From Synechococcus sp. MU1617 (GTDB taxonomy: Bacteria > Cyanobacteriota > Cyanobacteriia > PCC-6307 > Cyanobiaceae), in NCBI RefSeq assembly GCF_020514235.1, contig NZ_VTLB01000002.1, forward strand, positions 310,001-374,000: a stretch of 64,000 nt of DNA. Reading direction: 5' to 3'. The notes beneath the pieces were generated by a model that did not search any database, was not told the DNA's origin, and saw only the letters and a list, made by a program, of their open reading frames with translations. The position numbers were made by a program, and so were the translations under genes. Positions 8,847-64,000 of this stretch are shown here, one piece after another. Position 1 is the stretch's first letter; each line of letters starts with the position of its first letter.

Positions 8847-9410
8847 ATGATCTCCAGTAACGACTTCCGCACCGGCACCACGATTGAGATCGATGGGGCC
8901 GTTTGGCGCGTTGTCGAGTTCTTGCACGTCAAGCCCGGCAAGGGATCTGCCTTCGTGCGCACCAAGCTCAAGGCCGTGAAGTCCGGCAACGTGGTGGAGA
9001 AAACCTTCCGCGCTGGGGAAATGCTTCCCCAGGCGATGTTGGAGAAATCCTCTCTTCAGCACACCTACATGGAAGGTGAGGACTATGTCTTCATGGACAT
9101 GGCCACCTACGAGGAGACCCGCCTCAGTGCTGCCCAGATTGGAGAGAGCCGCAAGTACCTCAAGGAAGGCATGGAGGTGAATGTGGTGTCCTGGAACGAC
9201 AATCCCCTCGAGGTTGAACTGCCCAACTCCGTTGTTCTGGAGATCAAAGAAACCGACCCTGGCGTCAAAGGCGACACCGCCACGGGTGGCACCAAGCCCG
9301 CCATTCTTGAGACCGGTGCACAAGTGATGGTTCCGCTCTTTCTTTCTGTGGGAGAAAAGATCAAAGTGGACACCCGCAACGACAGTTACCTCGGGCGCGA
9401 AAACGGATGA
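8847..9410 (+). CDS. efp: Translation elongation factor P
   Basis: EF-P binds the ribosome between the P and E sites and relieves stalling at polyproline. The 187-residue protein starts [10 protein letters not shown] and has the tip loop V-K-P-G-K-G with the unmodified or modifiable Lys at position 32, followed by the two OB domains and the C-terminal [10 protein letters not shown]. The ATG at 8847 is chosen because it matches the family start exactly; an upstream in-frame extension is less likely. It overlaps accB by 4 bases, a conserved efp-accB pairing. Confidence 0.97.
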
Positions 9411-9883
9411 CCATGCAGCTGGATCACGAACAACTGCACCGCTTGCTGGAGGCGCTCGGTGAGAGCGACATCCAGGAGTTCCGGTTGGAAGGAGATGATT
9501 TCCGTCTGGAAATCCGTCGCAACTTGCCTGGCCAGGCCGTCATGGCTCCGGTCATGCCCGCTCCCGTTGCTGCTGCACCAGCTCCTGTTGCGCCCGCCGA
9601 GCCTGCATCTGCGCCGCCTGCATCCACCGCAACGCGCAGCGACCTGCTCGAAGTCACAGCCCCCATGGTGGGCACCTTCTACCGTGCCCCTGCGCCAGGC
9701 GAACCTTCTTTTGTTGAAGTGGGCAGTCGGATCAATGTCGGCCAGACCGTCTGCATCCTCGAGGCAATGAAGCTGATGAACGAGCTGGAGTCTGAGGTTG
9801 GCGGTGAAGTGGTGGAGATCCTGGTGGACAACGGCACGCCCGTTGAATTCGGTCAGGTGCTGATGCGGGTCAAGCCGGCCTGA
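9407..9883 (+). CDS. accB: Biotin carboxyl carrier protein of acetyl-CoA carboxylase
   Basis: AccB carries biotin between biotin carboxylase and carboxyltransferase in the first step of fatty acid synthesis. The 158-residue protein has a short helical N-terminus, an Ala/Pro-rich flexible linker (about residues 45-78) and a biotinyl domain with E-A-M-K-L-M-N, biotinylated on K122. The start overlaps the efp stop as ATGA. Its 3' end is one base from the convergent pdxA gene. Confidence 0.96.
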
Positions 9884-9884
9884 G

Positions 9885-10901
9885 TTAGCTCAGGTCCCAG
9901 GCGGCTTGAATCGCTGCCGTCGTGCTCTCAGGGCTGGCGACACCTTCAGCTGCGATGTCGAAGGCGGTGCCGTGGTCGGGGGAGGTGCGTAGGAACGGCA
10001 GTTCCAAGGTGGTGTTCACCGCAGCGTCGAAGGCCAGCAGCTTCACAGGAATGAGCCCCTGGTCGTGATACAGGGCCAAAATCCCGTCAGGACCTGGCTG
10101 GTTTGGGGTCTGCCAAGCGCGAGCAGCGCTGATCCAGCAGGTGTCGGGAGGAACGGGACCCTCCAGCTGCGCCTGAGGATGGTCCTTTCTCCATTGATCC
10201 AGTAGCGGCAGCAGCCATTCGGCTTCTTCATGGCCCAGCTGACCGGCTTCGCCGGCATGGGGATTGAGCCCGGCGATACGCAGATGTGGTTTGGTGGTGA
10301 AGCGTCGACAGAAGCCTTCCAGCACGTTCAGTTTGTGGTGCACCAGGTCTGGGGTCAGCGCATCAGGGATCTGGCTCAGGGGGATGTGGGTGGTGGCCAG
10401 CAAGGTGTTCAGGCGCCAACCGCTGGTTGGAGAGACGGCGGTGAACAGCATTGAGGAGCGCTGTCGTCCAGCCAACTCAGCCAGCCGTTCGGTCTGCCCG
10501 GGATAGCGATGGCCGGCCGCATGCCAGAGATGTTTGGCGATGGGGGCGGTGACCAAGGCGCGGGACCCCCGTTCCTGCAGCAGTTCGACGGCGCGGGTGA
10601 GCCAGCGAAACCCCGCATCGGCTCCGCAGGTGGTGGGTTGTCCTGGCTGAACACTGGCCTCGAGCGGTTGGTCGTCGATCCTGAGTGCTGCAGGGTCGGC
10701 AAGGGGGTGGTTTGTTTGCCGCCGCAGTCGCGCGTGGGTGCTGATCAGCGTGCGTCGGCAACCCACCAGCAGGGGTTGGAGCTCTGGGGACAGCGTGGGT
10801 GAGGCGAGGGCCTTCAGCACCACTTCCATGCCGATACCCGCGGGATCGCCGAGAGCGATCACAAGCTCATGCCTAGGGTTCGTGGAATCGTGGGGGGCCA
10901 T
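9885..10901 (-). CDS. pdxA: 4-hydroxythreonine-4-phosphate dehydrogenase PdxA
   Basis: PdxA oxidises 4-phosphohydroxy-L-threonine in the DXP-dependent pyridoxal-phosphate pathway. The protein (338 residues from the ATG at 10901) begins A-L-G-D-P-A-G-I-G, shows A-P-I-A-K-H-L-W, the metal-site G-L-N-P-H-A-G-E, and Y-H-D-Q-G-L-I-P-V-K followed by T-S-P-D-H-G-T-A-F-D. An in-frame upstream extension to 11048 would overlap the opposite-strand small gene and is rejected. The start is divergent from the 61-residue gene, only 4 bases away. Confidence 0.94.
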   Translation of the reverse strand: MAPHDSTNPRHELVIALGDPAGIGMEVVLKALASPTLSPELQPLLVGCRRTLISTHARLRRQTNHPLADPAALRIDDQPLEASVQPGQPTTCGADAGFRWLTRAVELLQERGSRALVTAPIAKHLWHAAGHRYPGQTERLAELAGRQRSSMLFTAVSPTSGWRLNTLLATTHIPLSQIPDALTPDLVHHKLNVLEGFCRRFTTKPHLRIAGLNPHAGEAGQLGHEEAEWLLPLLDQWRKDHPQAQLEGPVPPDTCWISAARAWQTPNQPGPDGILALYHDQGLIPVKLLAFDAAVNTTLELPFLRTSPDHGTAFDIAAEGVASPESTTAAIQAAWDLS

Positions 10902-10905
10902 CGCT

Positions 10906-11091
10906 GTGCTGCGCTTGCTGCTGCTGGGGTGTCTGTTGGTGGGATTGGCCTCTGGCTTGAGCAATGGCTGGATCGAACTGAACCTCTCCCGTTTCCTTGA
11001 GGATGTCGGGCTTTCACCGCCTGAGGAAGGTGAGGACTTCGATTTCAACCGTTGGCTGATCGAGGGGGAGAACGCAGGTCAGACGGAGTGA
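10906..11091 (+). CDS. Small hydrophobic-N-terminus protein of unknown function
   Basis: A 61-residue reading frame starting with GTG just 4 bases from the divergent pdxA ATG. Residues 2-17 are strongly hydrophobic (L-R-L-L-L-L-G-C-L-L-V-G-L), forming a signal or anchor; the remainder is acidic and ends in an extended tail. The encoded sequence looks like a real small protein rather than a shadow because it fills the only gap between pdxA and the SDR gene and has a sharp domain structure. The 3' end overlaps the convergent SDR gene by 47 bases. The family was not recognised. Confidence 0.6.
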   Translation: MLRLLLLGCLLVGLASGLSNGWIELNLSRFLEDVGLSPPEEGEDFDFNRWLIEGENAGQTE

Positions 11092-12749: not shown

Positions 12750-14378
12750 GTGATTGTTTGTGGGGGGCTGTTGGTGCCGTCAAATCCCACATTGACCTGT
12801 TGCCTGGATCTCTCTCCAGCAGGACTGATCCGCGTGGTCAGCCCGTTTGATGCGGTGACCCAGTCCCAGTTGCGTCGGATCAAGCCCAGGGGGCGTTGGA
12901 TCGGCCCCGGCCATGGCTGGGATTTTCCCTTGGCCGCAGCCGATGCACTTCAGCAGGCCCTCGGGCGCCGTTTCCCTGTCACCTCTGCTTTGCAGCAGTG
13001 GCTTGATTGGTGCCAGCACCCCCTGCCCCCGCTGCCCCCGCACCGGACCCTTGTGGCGGCAGCAGATCTTGACGAAGCCCTGCAAGATGGTCGTCGCCCT
13101 CTGCGCCATCAACGCTCCGGTGTCCGTTGGCTCTTGGCCCGTCGCGGCGCCGTTCTGGCCGATGAGATGGGGCTGGGAAAGACCCTTACAGCTTTGTTGG
13201 CGGCCCGTGCCCTGATGCGCTGCGCTGAGGTGCGGTTGCTTGTGGTGGCTCCCGTCGGTCTGCATCCCCACTGGCGCCGGGAATCAGAGGCCCTTGGGGT
13301 TGAGATTGAGTTGGTGAGCTGGGCTCGCCTGCCCGACACCCTGCCGCCAGCGGGAACGCTTCTGGTGGTGGATGAAGCGCATTACGCCCAGTCACTGCAG
13401 GCGCAGCGCACGGCTGCTTTGCTGCGTCTGGCCCGTCATCCCCGTCTGCGGGCGATTTGGATGCTCACGGGGACCCCAATGAAGAACGGTCGTCCGTCCC
13501 AGCTGTATCCCCTGCTTGCGGCCATGGACCATCCAATTGCGCGGGATCAACGCCAGTTCGAGGAGCGGTATTGCCAGGGGCACTGGCGGGAGGGTCGAAC
13601 CGGCAAACGCTGGCAGGCTTCCGGGGCCAGTCAGCTGGAGGAGCTGCGTCGCCTGAGTCGACCGTTGATCCTTCATCGCCGCAAGCAGCAGGTGGTGGAC
13701 CTCCCTCCCAAGCAGCGACGTCTTCACCCTGTGGTGCTGTCGGAGGCTGAGTTCACAGGCTTCGACCATCGTGTTGAGCTGGTGCTGGATGACTACCGGC
13801 GTCGGGCTCGTCTCGGAGAGGTGCGACGGGATGCTGAGCACCTGGCTCTGCTCACCTCCATGCGTCAGATCGCAGCGGAATTCAAATTGCCGGCGGCCCA
13901 GCAGCTGGTGGAGTCACTGCGCCGGCAAGGGGAGGCGGTGGTTCTGTTCAGTGGCTTTGTGGCCCCATTGCAGTTGTTGCAGCAAACCCTCGGCGGCGAG
14001 TTGTTGACCGGTCGTCAGCGCCCTGCTGAACGTCAGGAGAGTGTGGATCGGTTTCAGCAAGGTCAGAACGATTGTCTGCTGGCCACCTTTGGCACCGGTG
14101 CCCTTGGGTTCACCCTGCACCGGGCCCGTCATGTGGTGTTGTTGGAACGACCCTGGACGCCAGGCGACCTCGACCAAGCCGAAGATCGCTGTCATCGTTT
14201 GGGGATGGGGGATGGCTTGACCTGCCATTGGCTGCAGCTCGGTGCAGCGGATCAGCTGGTGGATGGTTTGTTGGCGAGCAAGGCGGAACGGATCGAGGTG
14301 TTGCTGGGGCCTCGGCGCTTGTCGCTGCAACGTCAATCACTCTCCGCCATGGTGCGGGATTGTTTGCAGGTGCTCTGA
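12750..14378 (+). CDS. SNF2-family DNA translocase with HARP-like N-terminal domain
   Basis: A 542-residue SF2/SNF2 ATPase. Residues about 30-75 (S-P-F-D then I-K-P-R-G-R-W-I and W-D-F-P-L) resemble a HARP domain as in SMARCAL1. Motif I is D-E-M-G-L-G-K-T at 138-145, motif II D-E-A-H at 208-211, motif III L-T-G-T-P, motif V G-A-L-G-F-T-L, motif VI Q-A-E-D-R-C-H-R-L-G. The family performs fork reversal or annealing rather than unwinding. GTG at 12750 is the longest start; later GTG or TTG starts are possible. The 3' end overlaps the convergent lipoprotein gene by 46 bases. Confidence 0.9.
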   Translation: MIVCGGLLVPSNPTLTCCLDLSPAGLIRVVSPFDAVTQSQLRRIKPRGRWIGPGHGWDFPLAAADALQQALGRRFPVTSALQQWLDWCQHPLPPLPPHRTLVAAADLDEALQDGRRPLRHQRSGVRWLLARRGAVLADEMGLGKTLTALLAARALMRCAEVRLLVVAPVGLHPHWRRESEALGVEIELVSWARLPDTLPPAGTLLVVDEAHYAQSLQAQRTAALLRLARHPRLRAIWMLTGTPMKNGRPSQLYPLLAAMDHPIARDQRQFEERYCQGHWREGRTGKRWQASGASQLEELRRLSRPLILHRRKQQVVDLPPKQRRLHPVVLSEAEFTGFDHRVELVLDDYRRRARLGEVRRDAEHLALLTSMRQIAAEFKLPAAQQLVESLRRQGEAVVLFSGFVAPLQLLQQTLGGELLTGRQRPAERQESVDRFQQGQNDCLLATFGTGALGFTLHRARHVVLLERPWTPGDLDQAEDRCHRLGMGDGLTCHWLQLGAADQLVDGLLASKAERIEVLLGPRRLSLQRQSLSAMVRDCLQVL

Positions 14379-14701
14379 CGCACCTGGAGTTCGTGCTGCA
14401 GCATCGGGTCGACTGGCTGGCTCGACTGCTTCAGCAGCGACAGTGCCAATTCGACGTCGTCGCAGGCTTTGGCTTGATTGCTAAGCAGGGTCCAGACAAG
14501 GGCACGGTCCCGATGCAGATCGGCCTGATCCGGTGTCTGCTCGATGGCCTCATCACAGCGTTTAACCATCAGCTTCAGGTCATCCATCCGGAAGTTGCCG
14601 AGGCAACTGGAGACGAGTGGCATCGGTGTGTTGGCAGGCGTCGAGGGTTGCTTGCTTTGGCAGCCAGCCATCAACACAGCAGCCAGGAGAGTCAGACCCA
14701 A
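14333..14701 (-). CDS. Putative lipoprotein of unknown function
   Basis: About 122 residues starting from a TTG 14 bases after the upstream gene's stop. The N-terminus L-T-L-L-A-A-V-L-M-A-G-C is a lipobox with the lipidated Cys 13 residues from the start; the mature part is helical with two Cys (S-S-C-L-G-N and V-K-R-C-D-E), then K-A-C-D-D-V and S-T-C-K. The helix-turn spacing suggests two TPR-like repeats. A longer frame to 14875 exists but lies inside the preceding gene and is low-complexity, so it is rejected. The start codon is uncertain. Probably co-transcribed with the secreted protein upstream. Confidence 0.65.
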   Translation of the reverse strand: MGLTLLAAVLMAGCQSKQPSTPANTPMPLVSSCLGNFRMDDLKLMVKRCDEAIEQTPDQADLHRDRALVWTLLSNQAKACDDVELALSLLKQSSQPVDPMLQHELQVRQSTCKQSRTMAESD

Positions 14702-14714
14702 AAGCCCTGAGGGA

Positions 14715-15125
14715 TCAGTAGCTGTAGCGCGTGGTGTCTTCGGTGCTCTCGATGGTGCTTTCGGTGACGGATGTGGAGTTTGCAAGGGCGGCAGCGGTGG
14801 CTGGTTGGGTGTTTCCGCCGAACAGATCACCAAGGAACTGGCCACAGTCGGGGAAATTGCCGGGGTCCTGGACAACGGCTTCCGTAATCATCACCGAGGC
14901 ATGCTCCGGGGATGTTTTGAACACGCCGCTGCGCTGCCGTTTGATCACGGCGTAGGCGGCTTTCCAGCTCACCTCGTGCTCGTTTCCGCTGGAACGCATG
15001 TAGCAATAGATCTTGGCGCCCTTCTCTTCAGTGGCTTCGGCCGCTTGCAGGGGGTGGGTCACGCTGCTGAGAGCGCCGATCAGGGCCGCGGCGGACAGAA
15101 CCAGCGATGACCTGATTGGACCCAT
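14715..15125 (-). CDS. Secreted protein of unknown function (DUF6554-like)
   Basis: A 136-residue exported protein: signal peptide at residues 1-29 (S-L-V-L-S-A-A-A-L-I-G-A-L, cleavage after L-Q-A-A), then a compact domain with K-I-Y-C-Y-M-R-S-S-G-N-E-H-E-V-S-W and F-P-D-C-G, giving two conserved-looking cysteines. The last 30 residues are a Ser/Thr-rich tail. The domain resembles a small cyanobacterial family I know as DUF6554; the number is from memory. No catalytic motif is visible. A likely lipoprotein gene follows 14 bases downstream. Confidence 0.75.
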   Translation of the reverse strand: MGPIRSSLVLSAAALIGALSSVTHPLQAAEATEEKGAKIYCYMRSSGNEHEVSWKAAYAVIKRQRSGVFKTSPEHASVMITEAVVQDPGNFPDCGQFLGDLFGGNTQPATAAALANSTSVTESTIESTEDTTRYSY

Positions 15126-54295: not shown

Positions 54296-55504
54296 ATGCC
54301 GAATCCTCCCTCGCAAAACTGGCTCCTTATCAGTTTTGATCAGTGGCGGGGAGACTGGTTGCATCAGTCCTGGCTCCGTCTGCCTTATCTGCAATCGATC
54401 GCGGCTGAAGGGTGGGATCTACGTCGTTGCTACACATCAAGCCCCCAGTGCGTCCCCGCTCGAGTGAGTTGGTTGACGGGACAAAGACCTGCGGACATTG
54501 GGTTGACCACTAACAGGCCTTACACGGTGCCGGCGGACGCAAGATCTTTTGTGCGCAACCTCCGGCAGGATTTCGGCTACAACACGGCTCTGGTTGGCAA
54601 GACCCACTGGACTCCTCACAAAGGTCAAGGCGATTTGAGGGACAACATCCCGTTGTTGAACGACTTGGGATTTGATCGAGCCCGAGAGATTGCAGGACCG
54701 CGTGCGTTGACTCGTCTTGAGTGCGAGCTGACGGATCTTTGGCGCGACTCTGGCGTTTTTGATCTCTATCGGGAGGATCTTAAGGATCGATATCGCAACG
54801 GTCGGGTTCACTGCGTCAGGCCCACTGTTCTGCCGGACGAGCTTTATCCCGATCTCTGGCTAACCGGGATCGCTCTGGAGGAACTTGCTCGATTGCCGAT
54901 GGATCAACCATGGCTGCTTTGGGTGAGTTTCCCTGGCCCCCATGAGCCCTTTGATGTTCCCTTGTCCTGGAGTCGTCGACGGCCGATCCCCAAGCCCCAG
55001 CCCAGGCCTCCATTGGGTTCAGCCAAGGGTGTTCATGTTCCTGATGGAAGCGTTCTTGCCGGCAAGCTCCGGCGTTGGCCTCATGGGCTGCCAGAAGAGG
55101 CAGTTGACGCTCTACGCCAGGACTATGCGAATCATTTGGAGTTGTTGGATGCTCAGCTTGGCCAGATTTTGCAGGCTCTGGAGCGTCGAAGTGATGCCAA
55201 TCGAACAGCTATCTCCGTCTGCAGTGATCACGGAGAGCTTCTGGGGGACTGGGGTTTAATGCTGAAAGGTTGTTTTCTTGAGGGAGCAATTCGATCGTTG
55301 TTTCTGCATCGTCCACCTGGCGGTCGTGCCGGTTGGAGGCGGCTTTGGAGGTACAACCGGCGGCCATTTGGATTGACTTCTGCACTCTGGGCAGCAATGG
55401 GAGCGGTTTCCAATCCTTTGGAGGGTAGTTTCGGTTCAAGGCTTCGCCGCATGAAAGGTCCTGTAACTGTCGACTACGCCGATGAGGTGATGACGGTCAT
55501 ATGA
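54296..55504 (+). CDS. Sulfatase-family alkaline phosphatase-superfamily enzyme
   Basis: A 402-residue member of the sulfatase family. Metal/active-site residues appear as F-D-Q-W-R-G-D (15-20), the formylglycine-type C52-V-P-A-R56, K-T-H-W with the conserved Lys and His, and S-D-H-G-E at about 305-309. The C-x-P-x-R form means it needs oxidation of Cys to formylglycine to be a hydrolase. No signal peptide is seen, so activity on intracellular or lipid-linked sulfate esters is possible. ATG lies 14 bases from the divergent mutS; the stop overlaps the next gene by 4 bases. Confidence 0.85.
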
Positions 55505-56514
55505 GACTGCTTTTGCATATCGGTCATGGCAAGACTGGAAGTTCTTACCTGCAGAGCTGGCTTGCGACCAATACGAATTCACTGGCGCTTCAGAGTGGGC
55601 TTCTCTATCCAACGAAGTCTTCAGATAATTTTTTCCTGGAGGACCGTGCTTCGCAAGGGCGCTTCAGCATGGGCAACGGCCACGTTCTTCAGGCTTTGCT
55701 TGATTCCTCAATTAGGCCGCGCCGCTGGCGGCGCAAGCTGTTGGACAAAGAGGGGGTTTCTCGCCGCCAACTGAATGGTTTGGTGTTCAGTTTTGAAGGC
55801 TGGGCCAAGCAGTTGGATCAACTGCTTCCACCTTTATTGCCAGTTGCAGATCGTTGGGGAGTTAAGCGAATCGAGTTGCTTTTGATGGTTCGCGATCCGC
55901 TGGAGCATGCCTGCTCCGTTTATAGCCAGATGGTTAAACGTCACGGTTATACAGCCGATTTCGAGCAGTGGCTCTTCGATTATGGATTTATGGCGCGATT
56001 GCTGAAATCATTGGAGTTGATCGAGAAATATCAGGAGCGAATTAAACTTACGATTGTTCATTATGGCCGCCGAAAGAAGGCATTGCTTCAAGAATTGCAG
56101 AGCTGGTTGGAGCTTGATCCATGGTTGTGTTGGCAGCCGCCGCCATCTTTGCCGGTCAATCGTTCGCTCACTGATGATGAGCTTCTCCTAATGCGTTGTC
56201 TCAATGGTCGTCTTGGAGATGCTGCAGCACCAGTAGGGGAGGCGTTGGTAGACCGGCTTCCAATGCTGCAGCCTGCGTGTTTGCATGCATCTTTGGCTGC
56301 AATTCAAGCATTTAATTCCCGTTGGGCGGGCGTCATTGAGCGTATCAATACTTTTTTGCCCGAATCTGCTGCTTTGAATTTAACTGAAGGCCTAAGTTTT
56401 GATCAAATTTTCAGTGACAATCTTGGAAGCTGTTCTGACAGCATTTCTCTGTCTTCTGAGCAGATTAGTTGCTTGGTTGATGGCTTGCTCGAAGTCGTTA
56501 ATTTTCGCTCTTGA
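55501..56514 (+). CDS. Sulfotransferase-like protein
   Basis: A 337-residue protein with an N-terminal PAPS-type loop L-H-I-G-H-G-K-T-G-S-S-Y-L-Q (residues 5-18) and a 3'-phosphate-like M-V-R-D-P-L-E-H-A-C-S near residue 125-135. The rest is helical, with no membrane segment. It is translationally coupled to the sulfatase (ATGA overlap), suggesting linked action on the same sulfated product. Its last 17 bases overlap the convergent nucleotidyltransferase gene. Base composition is AT-richer than the core. Confidence 0.75.
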   Translation: MRLLLHIGHGKTGSSYLQSWLATNTNSLALQSGLLYPTKSSDNFFLEDRASQGRFSMGNGHVLQALLDSSIRPRRWRRKLLDKEGVSRRQLNGLVFSFEGWAKQLDQLLPPLLPVADRWGVKRIELLLMVRDPLEHACSVYSQMVKRHGYTADFEQWLFDYGFMARLLKSLELIEKYQERIKLTIVHYGRRKKALLQELQSWLELDPWLCWQPPPSLPVNRSLTDDELLLMRCLNGRLGDAAAPVGEALVDRLPMLQPACLHASLAAIQAFNSRWAGVIERINTFLPESAALNLTEGLSFDQIFSDNLGSCSDSISLSSEQISCLVDGLLEVVNFRS

Positions 56515-57256
56515 GGGTCTCCAGGCTAAGTTTAAAGCATTCACAAAGTTCCCCAGGTGTTCCATAGATTTTGACTTTGTCAACTCTCGGTAGGCTCACT
56601 TCCATTCCTTTTGTTATTGCTTTATGAAGCATAGGTGCTATGTAATATTCGCCTTCAATAGTGTCTTGGCTGTAGAGAACGGCCTTCGCTTCTTTTAAAA
56701 AAATTTTGGTTGACGAGAATCCATATAATCCGATAGATGCGAGATCAGAGATCCTTTTTTTTTCGGCAATAGCGATGGCTCTGTGTGAATCCTTTGGATC
56801 TGGCTGTCCGAACGACCAGTGAGTTCCCTTAGCAGGAAATACGGCCATAGATGCGAATCCCTGTATGGATTCGAATTCGGGTTTCCATTGGAAGCCAGTA
56901 TCGCAATTATGGATAAGAAGTGGAAGGGATTCATCGAGATCGGACGTTTGAAGTATTGATTCAAGTGCGGCTACTGATGTTGCCAGCTGGCCGGGTAAAA
57001 GTTGTTCCAATTCGAACCAGTGAATATTTACTTTTGGTAGTCGTCTTTTTAGCTTTTTTTCGAGGGCTTTGCGTACCTCATGCTTATGTTGTACTGCCAA
57101 TATGAGATGGTCTTCATTTGCAAACTCAAAACAATCTAGAGTGTGCTCCAGGAGCGTTCGTCCTTTTGCGATAATGAGGGGTTTGGCTACATTTATCCCT
57201 GCATTTTTGAACCGACTGCCGGCGCCGGCTGCAGGGATTAATACTGTTTTTGCCAT
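56498..57256 (-). CDS. Sugar-nucleotidyltransferase-like protein
   Basis: A 252-residue NTP-transferase: the signature P-A-A-G-A-G-S-R-F (residues 8-16) with K-P-L-I, and the later L-L-I-H-N-C-D-T-G-F metal-site equivalent. The family activates sugar-1-phosphates with NTPs for surface polysaccharides; which sugar is not clear. It ends the minus-strand group 59990-56498; its ATG overlaps the preceding gene's TAA by one base (TAATG). The coding DNA is AT-rich relative to the window. Confidence 0.82.
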   Translation of the reverse strand: MAKTVLIPAAGAGSRFKNAGINVAKPLIIAKGRTLLEHTLDCFEFANEDHLILAVQHKHEVRKALEKKLKRRLPKVNIHWFELEQLLPGQLATSVAALESILQTSDLDESLPLLIHNCDTGFQWKPEFESIQGFASMAVFPAKGTHWSFGQPDPKDSHRAIAIAEKKRISDLASIGLYGFSSTKIFLKEAKAVLYSQDTIEGEYYIAPMLHKAITKGMEVSLPRVDKVKIYGTPGELCECFKLSLETLKSEN

Positions 57257-58983
57257 TAGATGCTCAAGCTCGCTTTCAACACGTTGTCAAAGCGATTTTC
57301 CAGGATCAGAACTGCAATGCAGCTGAACATGACGCAGTGCAAGGGCTCTTGACGGTGAAGGGGGAGCATCGAAAGAAACAGGCTGGCTGTTAAAAAGCGC
57401 TCCTCGTAGGGATTTAGTTCATCTTTGATTACTTCCTCTTGGATGGCATTGTTGACGATATCGTAGTGCTGTGGCACGTCAATCTGTAGCGTTAGTACGT
57501 TATCATTTAACTTCAGATGGAACATGCTGTTGCAAACAATATCGTAAAGGTATCGGCATGAATGCAATAATTTTACTAGATCATAGCGGGGGTCGCCATA
57601 TCCACTAGGCCATTGCGAATGCGGTGCCGCTTCGCCCCTTGGATCAATCATACGGATTGAGCCGCTGTAGGGATCAGCCAGGATGTTGTTGAAGCAGAGG
57701 TCTCCATGCGTGCGTCTCAGCTGTTGTGGCTTTTCAAGGGGAGGCAGTGCCTTCAGTGCTGCTTGGCTGGCAGCATGCGGGCTTGTTAATTTCATGACTT
57801 TTGTAGTTTCTCGTCCCTGAGGATTCACAAGTTGTAGATGAAGTGGGCTTTCCCAGAACTTTTCCCATTTCAAACCAAGATTAGATGTTAAGTCGGGAGG
57901 TTGTTTTCGCAGCAAGCTAAGCCTTTTGGCCAGTTTTTGACTGTAAAGCCACTTTGTTGATACCGGCTGAGGTGTGGGTTCTGGTGCATCGCTATCCAGC
58001 ATGATTTTTCGGGCTGTGGCTAGACGACGAGCGATTTGTCTCCATCCATTGCTTCCTAACTGCCAGTGCAGGAATAGTTCTGCCAAGTTGGGGAAGGGAA
58101 TATATTCTAGTTCTAGGCAGGAAGGTTCCTGGTTGGAAGTACTCATGTTTTGAGAAGCTAGTGCTGGAAAAAATCGTTGTAGTGGTAATGGCAGGTTGCG
58201 CAAATAGTTGTATTCCTGAACCAGTCGTTCTTGATCGCTGGAGCATTTGCGTATCAGGTCGGCTCGAGGGTCATAGGAAACTTTGTTGAAGCTGCGGCTT
58301 TTAAGTCTGTTTAGACGGCTGTAGCTGTAAGTAGCCCGATGGCCGAGGTCCATCCATGGGGCCATCCGAAATCGGACCTTCCCAGTCTTCCAAAGCCGTT
58401 CCGCGAGTAGCAGCAAATCGCTCCCTGCGGCTGGCAACAGCTGTTCGATCAGCTCCGTAGGTGCGCATATCACGCCGGTGAAAGGATGCGAGGGTTTTTC
58501 GTCTGTGCTGACCGATTGATCTCTGCTGAGAAAACGAGGCTTATTGGTTTCGGGTGCTTCTACAGCGGACCAGTTCTCCCGGGGGATGGGCCGTTCGCCT
58601 AGCTCGATGCTGTAGCAGAGCTCCACGTCCAGGGTTGGAAGGCTAGTGATCGGTTGCAGCAGTAGCCAAGGTGTCTCGATCTTTGGTAGCGCTTTCTTGA
58701 TGCTTGCGATCACGTCGGATTGTGGTTCGATCAGCAGCTTTTCCAAACCGCTGTCACAAAGGTGGGGTCGGATGGGTGTGTTTGATTGATCCGATAGAAG
58801 GCACTGCTTAACACCATCTAATTTACGAAAATGTTGGTTAATTTGGTCTCGTGCGAGGCCAGATCCATCAGCTAGGTCGGCCGGATTGTTGCTCAAGCTT
58901 GGGAGTGGGCCAATCTGTTTATTGTTCAGGGACCCGCCAGCCAGTATTAGGACGGTCAGCCATGGATCAGGTAGTTGGCTCAT
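57256..58983 (-). CDS. Fused nucleotidyltransferase-like and LicA-type kinase-like protein
   Basis: A 575-residue two-part protein. The first part (about 1-250) resembles a nucleotidyltransferase fold with L-I-L-A-G-G at 13-18 and the later W-M-D-L-G-H-R-A-T-Y-S-Y-S-R with S-F-N-K, features of capsule nucleotidyltransferases; the P-loop is not intact. The second part (about 260-575) is an aminoglycoside phosphotransferase/choline-kinase domain with H426-G-D-L-C-F-N-N and I-D-P-R-G. Similar fusions occur in capsule phospho-sugar pathways. Start overlaps the upstream gene by 4 bases. Confidence 0.75.
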   Translation of the reverse strand: MSQLPDPWLTVLILAGGSLNNKQIGPLPSLSNNPADLADGSGLARDQINQHFRKLDGVKQCLLSDQSNTPIRPHLCDSGLEKLLIEPQSDVIASIKKALPKIETPWLLLQPITSLPTLDVELCYSIELGERPIPRENWSAVEAPETNKPRFLSRDQSVSTDEKPSHPFTGVICAPTELIEQLLPAAGSDLLLLAERLWKTGKVRFRMAPWMDLGHRATYSYSRLNRLKSRSFNKVSYDPRADLIRKCSSDQERLVQEYNYLRNLPLPLQRFFPALASQNMSTSNQEPSCLELEYIPFPNLAELFLHWQLGSNGWRQIARRLATARKIMLDSDAPEPTPQPVSTKWLYSQKLAKRLSLLRKQPPDLTSNLGLKWEKFWESPLHLQLVNPQGRETTKVMKLTSPHAASQAALKALPPLEKPQQLRRTHGDLCFNNILADPYSGSIRMIDPRGEAAPHSQWPSGYGDPRYDLVKLLHSCRYLYDIVCNSMFHLKLNDNVLTLQIDVPQHYDIVNNAIQEEVIKDELNPYEERFLTASLFLSMLPLHRQEPLHCVMFSCIAVLILENRFDNVLKASLSI

Positions 58984-59990
58984 GGCTGCATCAGCCTGTC
59001 GCTGTAGAGAAAGCCTCGCAGACCCTTGCAGTCCCTAAAGGGGATGCCGCAGAAGTTGAGAAAGCGGCTGAAGCAGATCTCAGATGCAAAGCGTGGGTGG
59101 CCCCTCAACAATCTATGGAAGTGTTCTGGTCCTTGATTTCGTCGGTTGCCGAGAGCTTGGACCAGGCTTGGATCAATTTTTTCCAGCTTTCGTCGCCAGA
59201 GGCTTGGGGTTGGAGGTCTGCCGATCAGTTCGGCTGGCCAATTCATCCCATACCACTTGACTGAGTCATCGGATGCGAGCACTTGTTTCAGATTTATCGG
59301 CCAGTAATCCTTTTCCCGTTGATCGAACCAGCCTGGAATTGCGTCAAAGAAACCCTCGAGCATTTGCATGCTCTGGCGCCTTCCACCAAAAACTTTGTCA
59401 GAGGCACCAACCAAGCCCGAATCGGGATGACGGCAAGCCCTGCGTACTGATTTCAGCACTGCTTTGGGATGAACGATGTGGTAATCCGATCGGAGCTTGA
59501 TCACATAGCGATATGTAGCCCCGCGTTGATTTTCTTCCTTGCGCAATAGCCGCCATGCCAGTTCGAGTTTGTGCCATTGCTTCATAGCGTTCACAGGCAC
59601 AGCTTGATCCCGTTTGGTCTCAAGAGGATGATCCTCCACAATTAGAGTTCGTTCAGGAGAAGTGAGTTGCAGGGCGCGATCGCGAAATTCCGCCGTGGTC
59701 ACGACGAACAAATCTGCACGCTTCTTGAGGGCTCTAAACAGCTGGCCGGAGCGGTTAAGGCAGCGCAGTTCCCCCGTGATCAGCACGGCAAAACGTGGAT
59801 GTTTGTGGGGGGTTGTCCAAGTTGGTGCCTGCTGAACCAGTGATTGCGGACGGAGCCGATTGATTCGTCTGGCCTCTATTAGAGCAATGTCCTCAAGGAT
59901 GGGGTGTTGGTCTGAAGGATCTGGCTCACAGGGTCTGCGATCTGCAGAGGCTGACAGCAGCACCCAGGCAGGTTGGTGCGGGGCTGTCAT
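58980..59990 (-). CDS. Glycosyltransferase-like protein (WavE-type) of unknown substrate
   Basis: A 336-residue protein. A core around residues 88-180 reads F-A-V-L-I-T-G-E-L-R and Y-V-I-K-L-R-S-D-Y-H-I, which recalls WavE-like and related polysaccharide glycosyltransferases with an R-x-D metal/nucleotide motif. The N-terminal 60 residues are unlike the family and probably disordered. No membrane helix. It heads the minus-strand group with the kinase fusion and the nucleotidyltransferase, so it is likely to act on the same glycan. Moderate confidence; it may be a non-GT domain. Confidence 0.6.
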   Translation of the reverse strand: MTAPHQPAWVLLSASADRRPCEPDPSDQHPILEDIALIEARRINRLRPQSLVQQAPTWTTPHKHPRFAVLITGELRCLNRSGQLFRALKKRADLFVVTTAEFRDRALQLTSPERTLIVEDHPLETKRDQAVPVNAMKQWHKLELAWRLLRKEENQRGATYRYVIKLRSDYHIVHPKAVLKSVRRACRHPDSGLVGASDKVFGGRRQSMQMLEGFFDAIPGWFDQREKDYWPINLKQVLASDDSVKWYGMNWPAELIGRPPTPSLWRRKLEKIDPSLVQALGNRRNQGPEHFHRLLRGHPRFASEICFSRFLNFCGIPFRDCKGLRGFLYSDRLMQP

Positions 59991-60242: not shown

Positions 60243-60698
60243 CTAATGGCGCAGCACCATCAACTGCTGGGGGTTCGCATCCTGGAAGCCCAGTTGCCGG
60301 TAGAAGCCTGCACTCTTTGTGGTCATCAGATAAACCCGTTCCACACCCACCACCGGTGGGGTGTGGAGTAGTTCTTCGATCACCCGGCGGCCCAGGCCGT
60401 GGCCCTGCAGATCGCCGGCTACGACGATGTCCCAGAGTACGGCTCGGCTGCAGCCATCAGAGGTGGCCCTGCCGAAGCCCACCAGCCGCTTGCCCCGCCA
60501 GAGGCTCACAACGGCGTCGCTACCGGCCAGCAACCGCCGCAGCTGACCAAAGCTGCGGCCCCGGGCCCAGAAGGCGTGGCGATCGAACAGCCGTTGCAGC
60601 TTGAGCAGCGACCGGCTGGGTCGCAGATCCGGCCCAAGCCCCAGCCAGCGCAGGCCGGGGGCACCGGGGGCATGGTGAACCAGCCGGATCGGGGTCAC
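60243..60698 (-). CDS. GNAT-family acetyltransferase
   Basis: A 151-residue GNAT protein: [10 protein letters not shown], the acetyl-CoA loop G-H-G-L-G-R-R-V (the Q/R-x-x-G-x-G/A form), and [16 protein letters not shown] at the end. This matches the Rimi/YhhY-like group that acetylates an amine or protein N-terminus; the substrate cannot be told. GTG start. It is divergent from uvrB by 71 bases. Confidence 0.85.
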
Positions 60699-60769: not shown

Positions 60770-62809
60770 ATGCCCGCCTACGACCTCACGGCTCCTTATT
60801 CGCCGAAGGGCGATCAGCCCGCGGCGATCAAGCAGCTTGTGCAGGGGGTGAACGGCGGTGAGCGCTATCAGACCCTGCTGGGGGCAACGGGCACGGGTAA
60901 GACCTTCACGATGGCCAATGTCATTGCCCAGACCGGCCGGCCAGCCCTGGTGCTGGCCCACAACAAAACCCTGGCGGCCCAGCTCTGCAACGAATTGCGG
61001 GAGTTCTTCCCCAAGAACGCCGTTGAGTACTTCATCTCCTATTACGACTATTACCAACCTGAGGCCTACGTTCCGGTCAGTGACACTTACATCGCCAAGA
61101 CGGCGTCGATCAACGAGGAGATCGACATGCTGCGCCACTCGGCGACGCGCTCGCTGTTTGAGCGGCGCGACGTGATCGTGGTGGCCTCGATCAGCTGCAT
61201 CTACGGCTTGGGCATTCCCAGTGAATACCTCAAGGCGGCGGTGAAGTTTGAGGTGGGCGAGACCCTCAACATCCGCGGTCAGCTGCGGGAGCTTGTAGAC
61301 AACCAGTACACCCGCAACGACACCGAAATCGCCCGCGGCCGTTTTCGGATGAAAGGGGATGTGCTGGAGATCGGCCCAGCCTACGAAGACCGGTTGGTGC
61401 GGATCGAGCTGTTCGGCGACGAGGTGGAGGCGATCCGTTATGTCGACCCCATCACCGGCGAGATCCTCCAGAGCTTGGAGGAGGTGAACATCTATCCGGC
61501 CAAGCACTTTGTGACGCCCAAAGACAGGCTTGACTCCGCCATCAGTGCCATCCGCTCGGAGTTGCGGGAGCGCTTGGATGTGCTCAACAGCGAAGGCAAG
61601 TTGCTGGAGGCTCAGAGACTGGAGCAGCGCACCAAGTACGACCTGGAGATGCTGGGGCAGGTGGGTTATTGCAACGGGGTGGAGAACTACGCCCGTCACT
61701 TGGCCGGCCGTGAGGAGGGCACACCGCCGGAGTGCCTTATTGATTACTTCCCGGACGACTGGTTGTTGATCGTGGACGAGAGCCACGTCACCTGCTCGCA
61801 GCTACAGGCGATGTACAACGGCGACCAGGCCCGTAAGAAGGTGCTGATCGAGCATGGTTTTCGCCTGCCCAGCGCAGCCGACAACCGGCCGCTCAAGGGC
61901 GAAGAGTTCTGGGAGAAGGCGCAGCAGACGGTATTTGTCTCGGCCACGCCGGGCAACTGGGAGATGGAGGTGAGCGGAGGTGAGGTGGCCGAGCAGGTGA
62001 TCCGCCCCACGGGAGTGCTCGATCCGGTAGTAGAGGTTCGGCCTACCACGGGGCAGGTGGACGATTTGCTGGGGGAGATCCGCGATCGGGCGGCCAAGAA
62101 CCAGCGGGTCCTGGTCACCACCCTCACCAAGCGGATGGCGGAAGACCTCACCGATTACTTGGCGGAGAACGAGGTGCGGGTGCGTTACCTGCACTCGGAG
62201 ATCCACTCCATCGAGCGGATTGAGATCATCCAGGACCTGCGTTTAGGCGAATACGACGTGCTAGTGGGGGTGAATCTGCTGCGAGAGGGCCTAGACCTGC
62301 CGGAGGTGAGCCTGGTGGCGATCCTCGATGCCGACAAGGAAGGCTTCCTGCGAGCGGAGCGCTCCTTGATTCAGACCATTGGCCGGGCCGCCCGCCATGT
62401 TGAGGGGGTGGCGCTGCTCTATGCCGACAACATGACCGACTCGATGGCCAAGGCCATCTCCGAAACCGAGCGGCGCCGTGCGGTCCAGCAGACTTACAAC
62501 AAGAAGCACGGCGTGGTGCCCACGGCGGCAGGTAAGAAGGCCAGCAACTCGATCCTCAGCTTCCTGGAACTGAGCCGCAAGCTGAAGCAGGACGGCCCTG
62601 ATGCCGATCTAGTTGAGGTGGTGGGAAAGGCCGCAAAGGCCTTGGAGGACAGTCTTGATGCCAGCATGGCTTTGGAGGCATTGCCGGAATTGATCCATCA
62701 GCTTGAGGCCAAGATGAAGGAGGCCGCCAAAAAGCTGGACTTCGAAGAGGCTGCGAACCTTCGGGATCGGGTCAAGCAGTTACGCCAGAAGATGGCGGGT
62801 CCTTCCTGA
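60770..62809 (+). CDS. uvrB: UvrABC system protein B
   Basis: UvrB verifies damage and loads UvrC in nucleotide-excision repair. The 679-residue protein has Walker A G-A-T-G-T-G-K-T at 38-45, the beta-hairpin [10 protein letters not shown], helicase motif D-E-S-H, and the C-terminal UVR motif with [15 protein letters not shown] at 60770 is set by the usual start; the upstream extension lacks similarity. No LexA-like box is obvious just upstream. Confidence 0.97.
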
Positions 62810-62898: not shown

Positions 62899-62970
62899 GC
62901 GGATGTAGCTCAGTGGTAGAGCATCTCCTTGCCAAGGAGAGGGTCGAGAGTTCGAATCTCTTCATCCGCT
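62899..62970 (+). tRNA. tRNA-Gly, anticodon GCC
   Basis: 72 bases fold as a cloverleaf: acceptor GCGGATG/CATCCGC, D arm GCTC-AGTGGTA-GAGC, anticodon stem TCTCC/GGAGA with loop TTGCCAA (anticodon GCC), T arm GAGAG-TTCGAAT-CTCTT. Discriminator is T; CCA is not encoded. It directly precedes a drastic drop in GC content and a type I secretion gene, so its 3' end is a candidate integration site. Confidence 0.96.
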
Positions 62971-63132
62971 TGCAATATTTCTTCAACACCTTTAAGGTTG
63001 CCCTAGGATCAGATAAAATCAATGTCTGTTATTTTTTATAACGTCATTTACCTCAATTCTTTTTATGATAGCTGATTTGAGTTGTTGTGTACGAGTAATT
63101 ATTTTAAAAATTTGCTTTGCTAGATATTCAAA
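62971..63132. other. AT-rich spacer at the island edge
   Basis: About 160 bases of strongly AT-rich sequence between the tRNA and the HlyD-like gene. No repeat of the tRNA 3' end is visible within the window. A weak TAAAAT-like -10 at 63014-63019 could serve the downstream gene; a -35 is not apparent. No other gene is supported. Confidence 0.5.
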
Positions 63133-64000
63133 ATGAGTAAAAATACAGAAAATCTTTCCTCTGAGAGCAATGATGCTTCTGCTGAGGTTGTAGATATAAC
63201 TTCGTCTGGGTCTAAGCTAACTCTAAAAGAAAAATCTAGGGATATTGCAAATAATTGGCTTGCTAAAAACAGATCACTTGTACTAAGGCAGACTCCATTT
63301 TGGGCTCAATCTTTATTGTTATTGTTAATAAGTCTTGGAGCAGTGTCGCTTGTAGGCTCAATTATTTTTCGTATTGATGAAGTCGTAACAGCTACCGGTC
63401 AATTGAAATCGTTGGGAGGAACTGTCGAAGTAAAAACACCAGCTGGTGGAAAGATTCAAAAGGTGTATTTCAAAGAAGGTGATTCTGTAAAAGCAGGAGA
63501 TTTGCTTCTCAAGTATGACACTCGTCAAGTTCAAGAAAAGAAGAATACTCTAATGATACTTATCAAAAATGAAAAAAATAGTCTAAAAACAAGATTAAGT
63601 AGCTTAGATAGCCAAAAAAGAACCCTATCACTACGCAAAAAGCTTTATGAAAGTATTTTGGATACAAAAAATATAGTATTAGGTGAAATGAAAATCTTGG
63701 TTTCTCAGGGTGCGTATCAAAAAATTCAATATTTGGCCAAGAAAGATGAAGTTCTTCAAATACAAACTCAGATCACTGAGATTGATGAGCAGCTTAATCG
63801 GATCGATATTGAAAAAAATGCTAATACATTGTCGTCTGAAAAGTCCCTAAATCAACTCAATAATGAATTAAAAAATTCTGAACTACAGCTTCAATATCAA
63901 AATGTTCTCGCCCCCACCGACGGTATTCTTTTTGATCTGCGCGCTGTTGAGTCTAGTGTCCTTCAACCAGGTGAAAAAATTGCATCCATAGTTCCACAAA
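63133..64000 (+). CDS. HlyD-family type I secretion membrane fusion protein (3' partial)
   Basis: Type I exporters send large Ca-binding or glycine-rich proteins straight to the outside; HlyD bridges the inner-membrane ABC transporter and outer-membrane TolC. The first 289 residues are in the window: a Ser/Asp-rich cytosolic start, a membrane helix at about 59-80, a lipoyl half at about 97-130 (V-E-V-K-T-P-A-G-G-K-I-Q), a long coiled coil to about 260, then the second lipoyl half L-A-P-T-D-G-I-L-F-D-L. Very AT-rich compared with uvrB (63541-63600 has 12 G+C of 60), so probably acquired. Confidence 0.88.
   Translation, partial: MSKNTENLSSESNDASAEVVDITSSGSKLTLKEKSRDIANNWLAKNRSLVLRQTPFWAQSLLLLLISLGAVSLVGSIIFRIDEVVTATGQLKSLGGTVEVKTPAGGKIQKVYFKEGDSVKAGDLLLKYDTRQVQEKKNTLMILIKNEKNSLKTRLSSLDSQKRTLSLRKKLYESILDTKNIVLGEMKILVSQGAYQKIQYLAKKDEVLQIQTQITEIDEQLNRIDIEKNANTLSSEKSLNQLNNELKNSELQLQYQNVLAPTDGILFDLRAVESSVLQPGEKIASIVPQ

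What the first reader, a model, noticed from the sequence alone, without database searches (positions are those of the whole stretch)
62899..64000. Island edge: tRNA-Gly followed by very AT-rich type I secretion gene
Composition drops abruptly after tRNA-Gly(GCC): 63541-63600 has 12 G+C of 60 against 40 of 60 in nearby uvrB. The first gene past the tRNA is a HlyD-like fusion protein, typically followed by an ABC exporter and a giant secreted protein. tRNA genes are classic integration sites, and marine Synechococcus islands often carry giant secreted or S-layer-type proteins.
Basis: partly seen in the sequence, partly recalled or inferred. Interest (0 to 1): 0.6.

Follow-up and report, generated by a model that had tools for sequence, protein, structure and literature searches.

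The report
Exchangeable surface-secretion cassette beside secA
A marine picocyanobacterium carries, between a glycine tRNA gene and secA, a 13.7-kb AT-rich block of genes that probably builds and exports a sugar-decorated surface protein, at a spot where some close relatives have nothing and others have different versions of similar machinery.

Summary
In detail: tRNA-Gly(GCC) at 62899-62970, a sharp fall in G+C after it, and an HlyD-like first gene. Reading on gives a 13.7-kb AT-rich block ending at secA: HlyD, a parvulin-like protein, an HlyB-like ABC exporter, a small (467 aa) RTX protein, glycosyltransferase-like and TPR proteins. Three relatives of the genus have 78 bp and no gene between tRNA-Gly and secA; five others have the same kind of cassette there; two have another exporter type. 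'Island edge with type I secretion' is supported. tRNA integration is not: no tRNA repeat, no tyrosine recombinase and no giant protein in the block. Slot exporters are 59-66% identical in 15 pairs while SecA is 88-96%, and five of six are 38-40% G+C. Repeated replacement by recombination in the flanks fits best, but an AU test does not reject local descent. Most likely function (inferred): a Ca2+-dependent RTX coat protein with its own exporter, glycosylated by its neighbours. A known kind of locus; this slot was not found described in the papers searched.

The parts
60243..60698 (-). GNAT acetyltransferase-like gene (named by eye), neighbour of the slot
60770..62809 (+). uvrB, left conserved flank
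62899..62970 (+). tRNA-Gly(GCC), left edge of the slot
63133..64000 (+). HlyD-type adaptor gene (408 aa; continues to 64359 beyond the window)
62971..64000 (.). part of the 13.7-kb block that lies in the window. Beyond the window's end (window-frame coordinates; contig C2 = coordinate + 310000) follow: parvulin-like protein 64378-65121 +; ABC exporter 65144-68119 +; RTX protein 69064-70467 -; GT4 glycosyltransferase 70527-71726 -; TPR proteins 71765-73507 + and 73529-74590 + (157 of 353 aa of the latter scanned); glycosyltransferase-like 74587-75600 + (below cut-off); GT25-like 75609-76547 - (just below cut-off); secA 76706-79519 + (right flank)

Best explanation
The block between tRNA-Gly(GCC) and secA is an exchangeable surface-coat cassette. 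Shown by sequence: an exporter set (HlyD adaptor, parvulin-like protein, HlyB-like ABC exporter), an acidic cysteine-free RTX protein, glycosyltransferase-like and TPR proteins, in a slot that is empty in three relatives and filled differently in others. Inferred: the exporter, with a TolC encoded elsewhere, moves the unfolded RTX protein out in one step; it folds on Ca2+ outside and lies on the surface as a coat; GT4 and its neighbours put sugar on it or on the surface glycan; the PPIase-like protein helps before export. Inferred: cassettes come and go by homologous recombination in the conserved flanking genes, largely from AT-rich picocyanobacteria, without an integrase.
For: Gene content and domains. 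Best solved relative of the exporter is E. coli HlyB, E 5e-148. A TolC-type (PF02321) protein is encoded at C7:43.8-45.1 kb. The shared cassette genes stand in the same order, with a few extra genes, in five genomes of the genus: G089, G116, G104, G120 and G106 (no GT337 match in G106). Empty slot of 78 bp in G102, G121, G107. In the 13 single-contig genomes of the genus 10 of 22 exporter hits lie within 16 kb upstream of secA, 0.145 expected. Slot exporters are 59-66% identical in all 15 pairs of six genomes while SecA (399-934 aligned residues) is 88-96%; the second exporter locus of G000 and G004 differs by about 0.16 per site and SecA of the same pair by about 0.17. Slot exporters of G000, G116, G089, G104, G120 are 38-40% G+C, that of G106 62%.
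Against: No experiment. The exporter tree does not reject G104+G106 as sisters (p-AU 0.132), and the six genus exporters already fall on one side of a branch, with support of only 41/50, so fast divergence in place is not excluded. A GC3 gradient into secA, expected if recombination ends there, was read by eye in G116 and G120 but not in G000, G089, G104 or G106. HlyD and ABC score below the NCBIfam subfamily cut-offs, the PPIase below Pfam's. Nothing but neighbourhood links this RTX protein to this exporter, and that the glycosyltransferases act on the RTX protein is a guess. The binomial count treats related genomes as independent.
Confidence: 0.58

Rival explanations
1. A tRNA-integrated mobile island (integrative element or tycheposon-like) that entered at tRNA-Gly and has since lost its integrase and right repeat.
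For: Sharp start at the tRNA 3' end in G000 and in G116, G089, G104, G120; foreign composition. Two serine recombinases lie further on, 20 and 29 kb beyond the end of secA.
Against: No tRNA fragment beyond chance in 71 kb downstream in G000 (11 nt), and in the other regions the longest shared pieces (8-12 nt) do not reach the tRNA 3' end; no PF00589 hit between tRNA-Gly and secA in any of 13 genomes; no integrase family among eight slot proteins and part of the ninth in G000. Serine recombinases and transposases were not searched for in the relatives.
Confidence: 0.1
2. Old resident locus: the genus ancestor had the cassette, it diverged very fast in place, some lineages lost it, and AT-richness is kept by selection.
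For: The exporters of the six genus members are on one side of a branch (support 41/50) and G104+G106 are not rejected as sisters (p-AU 0.132); gene order is nearly constant.
Against: Uniform 59-66% identity whatever the host distance; the other exporter locus evolves at about the SecA rate in the one pair compared; the same cassette is 62% G+C in G106 but 38-40% in five relatives; in the six genomes closest by SecA (95%) no exporter above 50% identity was found.
Confidence: 0.25
3. The exporter ships another substrate (for example peptides or a different large protein), and the RTX gene and sugar genes are unrelated neighbours.
For: Exporter and HlyD without an RTX match in the fetched stretches of G028, G079 and G043.
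Against: An RTX gene near the exporter in the six genus cassettes and in G004, G020, G099; no peptidase motif that I recognise in the C39-like region, as expected for RTX exporters rather than double-glycine peptides (motif recalled).
Confidence: 0.15

Closest known systems
Genomic islands of marine Synechococcus (Dufresne 2008, PMC2441476, passages read)
   Same: Deviant composition, borders set by tRNA, mobility or core genes, glycosyltransferases and ABC transport among the main known content
   Different: Here one slot is followed across relatives with its empty form and its alternative occupants
Synechocystis S-layer export, Sll1180/Sll1181/Slr1270 with Sll1951 (statement read in passages of PMC11594277; the primary paper not read)
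   Same: HlyB/HlyD-type exporter with an RTX surface protein and a TolC
   Different: Cargo here is 467 aa against 1741 (PMC3034196 passage); sugar and TPR genes travel with it
SwmA of Synechococcus WH8102 (PMC3034196 and PMC7522525, passages read)
   Same: RTX surface protein that appears glycosylated, in a clade-specific island with a glycosyltransferase
   Different: 130 kDa against 45 kDa; homology not tested
E. coli HlyB/HlyD type I secretion
   Same: HlyB is the best solved relative of the exporter
   Different: Extra N-terminal cNMP-binding domain; PPIase-like gene between HlyD and exporter
Tycheposons of Prochlorococcus (features recalled; only a search listing seen)
   Same: Start at a tRNA gene
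   Different: No tyrosine recombinase and no tRNA repeat here

Membership tests
Type I secretion system for RTX proteins | HlyB-like ABC exporter | tested here: met
   Best NCBIfam TIGR01846, 658.9 bits, but below its strict cut-off 725.55; best PDB relative HlyB; Walker A, LSGGQ, Walker B present
Type I secretion system for RTX proteins | HlyD adaptor | tested here: met
   PF13437 73.6 bits over cut-off 22.2; TIGR01843 145 bits, below its cut-off 208.65
Type I secretion system for RTX proteins | TolC outer-membrane channel in the genome | tested here: met
   PF02321 at C7:43799-45124 over cut-off; not linked to the cassette
Type I secretion system for RTX proteins | Cargo with GGxGxD-type repeats, no cysteine, acidic | tested here: met
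   PF00353 over cut-off; 5 strict GGxGxD and 8 looser repeats, 0 Cys, pI 4.05
Type I secretion system for RTX proteins | Export of the cargo by this exporter | not testable with these tools
   needs a deletion and a secretion assay
tRNA-integrated mobile element / tycheposon | Repeat of the tRNA 3' end at the far edge | tested here: not met
   longest exact piece 11 nt in 71 kb, 10 nt inside the block; 50 shuffles of the block give 9-13
tRNA-integrated mobile element / tycheposon | Tyrosine recombinase in the element | tested here: not met
   no PF00589 hit between tRNA-Gly and secA in 13 of 13 genomes searched
Flexible genomic island at a fixed site | Empty and differently filled site in close relatives | tested here: met
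   78-bp slot in G102, G121, G107; another exporter type in G112, G103
S-layer protein | Abundant protein forming the outer surface lattice | not testable with these tools
   needs microscopy or proteomics

The most novel reading that the evidence does not exclude
The tRNA-Gly/secA slot is a coat-type switch of picocyanobacteria: a surface RTX protein, its private exporter, a dedicated PPIase-like helper and its own glycosylation genes are swapped as one package between cells by recombination in the flanks, so that coat identity (seen by phages and grazers) is inherited independently of the rest of the genome.
Probability: 0.35. Interest if true: 0.65.

Novelty: new member of a known kind. Interest (0 to 1): 0.45.

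Why it matters
Surface variation in marine picocyanobacteria is thought to govern escape from phages and grazers, but is usually described as broad islands. Here one slot has a known empty form, occupants from at least three exporter clades and a recurrent gene set, so coat exchange can be followed and tested strain by strain.

Tried and rejected
tRNA-end repeat and tyrosine recombinase: looked for and not found. A giant secreted protein: not in this block; a 3144-aa frame follows tRNA-Gly in relative G067. Structure models of the TPR and RTX proteins of L121: mean pLDDT 42.8 and 52.5, too poor, not used, and no fold search was run. TPR580 as a known glycosyltransferase: its C-terminal half gave no convincing Pfam family (best E 0.1 in one of six members), nothing better than E 0.3 in the PDB and no GT9 (PF01075) hit at its place in 8 genomes; a likeness to GT9 motifs is recalled only. 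The best stretches of the hits to O-GlcNAc transferase fall on the TPR repeats and say little. Recombination end inside secA: no clear sign in G000. The uvrB half was misaligned for at least four genomes (G121, G107, G112, G103) and is dropped. In one search, 38 of 67 regions gave a tRNA-Gly to secA gap; the other 29 (secA cut off, or tRNA not upstream in the stretch) were dropped. In one search, 10 of 16 gave one. In one search the TPR353 figures for G000 rest on a fragment and are not used.

Papers: searches were run. Judged by titles and starts of abstracts, none listed a paper on a tRNA-Gly/secA or uvrB/secA slot (76 listed 10 of 11 papers, 91 listed 10 of 17); the library lacks most subscription journals. 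I read only passages of PMC2441476, PMC7522525, PMC4949707, PMC11594277 and PMC3034196.

Full report
Check. tRNA-Gly(GCC) lies at 62899-62970. G+C falls right after it: 12 of 60 at 63541-63600, while none of 62,900 60-mers starting at 1-62900 is that low. The 408-aa frame from 63133 is an HlyD-type adaptor.

Beyond the window. The window is contig C2:310001-374000 of a 2.32-Mb genome; I read on in C2. Between tRNA-Gly and secA lie 13,735 bp; the 1-kb bins of 63-76 kb have mean G+C 0.402 against 0.605 outside. Genes in window-frame coordinates: HlyD 63133-64359; a 247-aa parvulin-like protein 64378-65121 (Pfam scores below cut-off); a 991-aa ABC exporter 65144-68119 with an N-terminal cNMP-binding domain; a 467-aa RTX protein 69064-70467 on the other strand; a GT4 glycosyltransferase 70527-71726; TPR proteins 71765-73507 and 73529-74590; a glycosyltransferase-like gene 74587-75600; a GT25-like gene 75609-76547; then secA 76706-79519.

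The exporter's nearest solved relative is E. coli HlyB (E 5e-148). The region that corresponds to the C39-like domain of HlyB (inferred from that match; no Pfam C39 hit) shows no peptidase motif that I recognise (motif recalled). The RTX protein has no cysteine, pI 4.05 and 5 strict or 8 looser repeats; the profile of its family matches the solved 'antifreeze protein' 3p4g (E 8e-15), an RTX adhesin as I recall. A TolC-type protein is encoded on C7. A type I system with its own RTX cargo is the simplest reading; that they belong together is inferred from neighbourhood.

The slot in relatives. Compact relatives such as G010 and G016 have uvrB, five genes (lysC, holA, cobH, mutS, ribH; names given by eye), tRNA-Gly, GNAT, secA. 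Of 67 regions, 38 gave a tRNA-Gly to secA gap: 25 under 3 kb, 13 from 4.9 to 66 kb. In the window's own genus G102, G121 and G107 have mutS, uvrB, tRNA-Gly, 78 bp, secA in this order; between mutS and uvrB G102 has the GNAT gene as in the window, while in G121 and G107 a 195-aa frame on the other strand was called there. This is the empty form of the window's slot. G116, G089, G104 and G120 hold HlyD, PPI, ABC, RTX, GT4, TPR580, TPR353, GT337 in the same order, the last three of these genomes with two extra genes before GT337; G106 has the first seven, with a GNAT gene and one more gene between, and no GT337 match. G112 and G103 hold an exporter of a second clade in the slot, and G061 one of a third. 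G122, G101 and G105 also have one that is not of the first clade upstream of secA, but their tRNA-Gly was not in the fetched stretch.

How often. In 34 genomes of the genus, 7 including G000 have an exporter of at least 61% identity to this one; in all 6 of these with secA on the same contig it lies upstream of secA. Over the 13 single-contig genomes 10 of 22 exporter hits are within 16 kb upstream of secA against 0.145 expected; this treats genomes as independent, which they are not. Seven of the 13 have another exporter 100-140 kb downstream of secA; G000 has one at about 142 kb with G+C 0.60.

Exchange or descent. Among six cassette-bearing genus genomes exporters are 59-66% identical in all 15 pairs while SecA is 88-96%. 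The G000 and G004 copies of the other exporter are about 0.16 changes apart and their SecA about 0.17. Slot exporters are 38-40% G+C in five genomes and 62% in G106. In the six genomes nearest by SecA (95%) no exporter above 50% identity was found. Six single-cell Prochlorococcus genomes carry exporters of the same clade with G+C 36-39%. This favours repeated gain or replacement, perhaps from AT-rich picocyanobacteria. Against it: the AU test does not reject G104 with G106 (p 0.132), and the six genus exporters already fall on one side of a branch, with support 41/50 only.

No sign of integration at the tRNA. No piece of the tRNA longer than chance recurs in 71 kb downstream, and none of 13 genomes has a PF00589 match between tRNA-Gly and secA. 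The spacers on both edges of the filled slots share no clear sequence with the empty ones (by eye). Homologous recombination in the flanks is the best guess; a GC3 gradient into secA was read in G116 and G120 only.

Known and new. Glycan- and ABC-rich islands in marine Synechococcus are known (PMC2441476, passages). RTX surface proteins and type I export of an S-layer protein are known in cyanobacteria (PMC3034196 and PMC11594277, passages); SwmA sits in a clade-specific island with a glycosyltransferase (PMC7522525, passages). So this is a new member of a known kind. The exact slot was not found in the searches listed under Tried and rejected.

Noticed in passing
68929-69043 in window frame (L004:14929-15043): A 25-bp unit repeated 4.6 times just downstream of the RTX gene; each unit holds a terminator-like hairpin followed by a run of T on the RTX strand. 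G116 (89 bp x 2.2) and G120 (173 bp x 3.2) also have tandem duplications with a terminator-like hairpin at the RTX 3' end; G089, G104 and G106 gave no tandem array.
   Followed up: partly
54296-59990: A second patch of lower G+C (0.45-0.54 in 55-60 kb) between mutS and the GNAT gene, with a sulfatase and a nucleotidyltransferase over the Pfam cut-off; in G102 mutS and GNAT are neighbours.
   Followed up: partly
L092 (G000:C2:527784-534004): A second PPI-ABC-HlyD-GT4 set with native G+C (0.56-0.60) and an exporter 43% identical to the first.
   Followed up: partly
99817-101676 and 108352-109125 in window frame (L006:5817-7676 and 14352-15125): Two serine recombinases (PF00239, the first also PF07508), 20 and 29 kb beyond the end of secA; a possible separate mobile element.
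   Followed up: partly
L064 (G067): A 3144-aa frame directly after tRNA-Gly in a 10.8-kb gap before secA.
   Followed up: no
L008 (G089), 9263-10993: The TPR580 gene is split into 461-aa and 89-aa frames, a frameshift, an error or decay.
   Followed up: no
L120: A contig filed under a gammaproteobacterial MAG carries an HlyD 51% identical to this one, the best hit of the scan; perhaps a misbinned picocyanobacterial contig.
   Followed up: no
L016, L018, L019: In three Prochlorococcus single-cell genomes (G028, G079, G043) the same exporter type lies just after secA instead of before it.
   Followed up: partly
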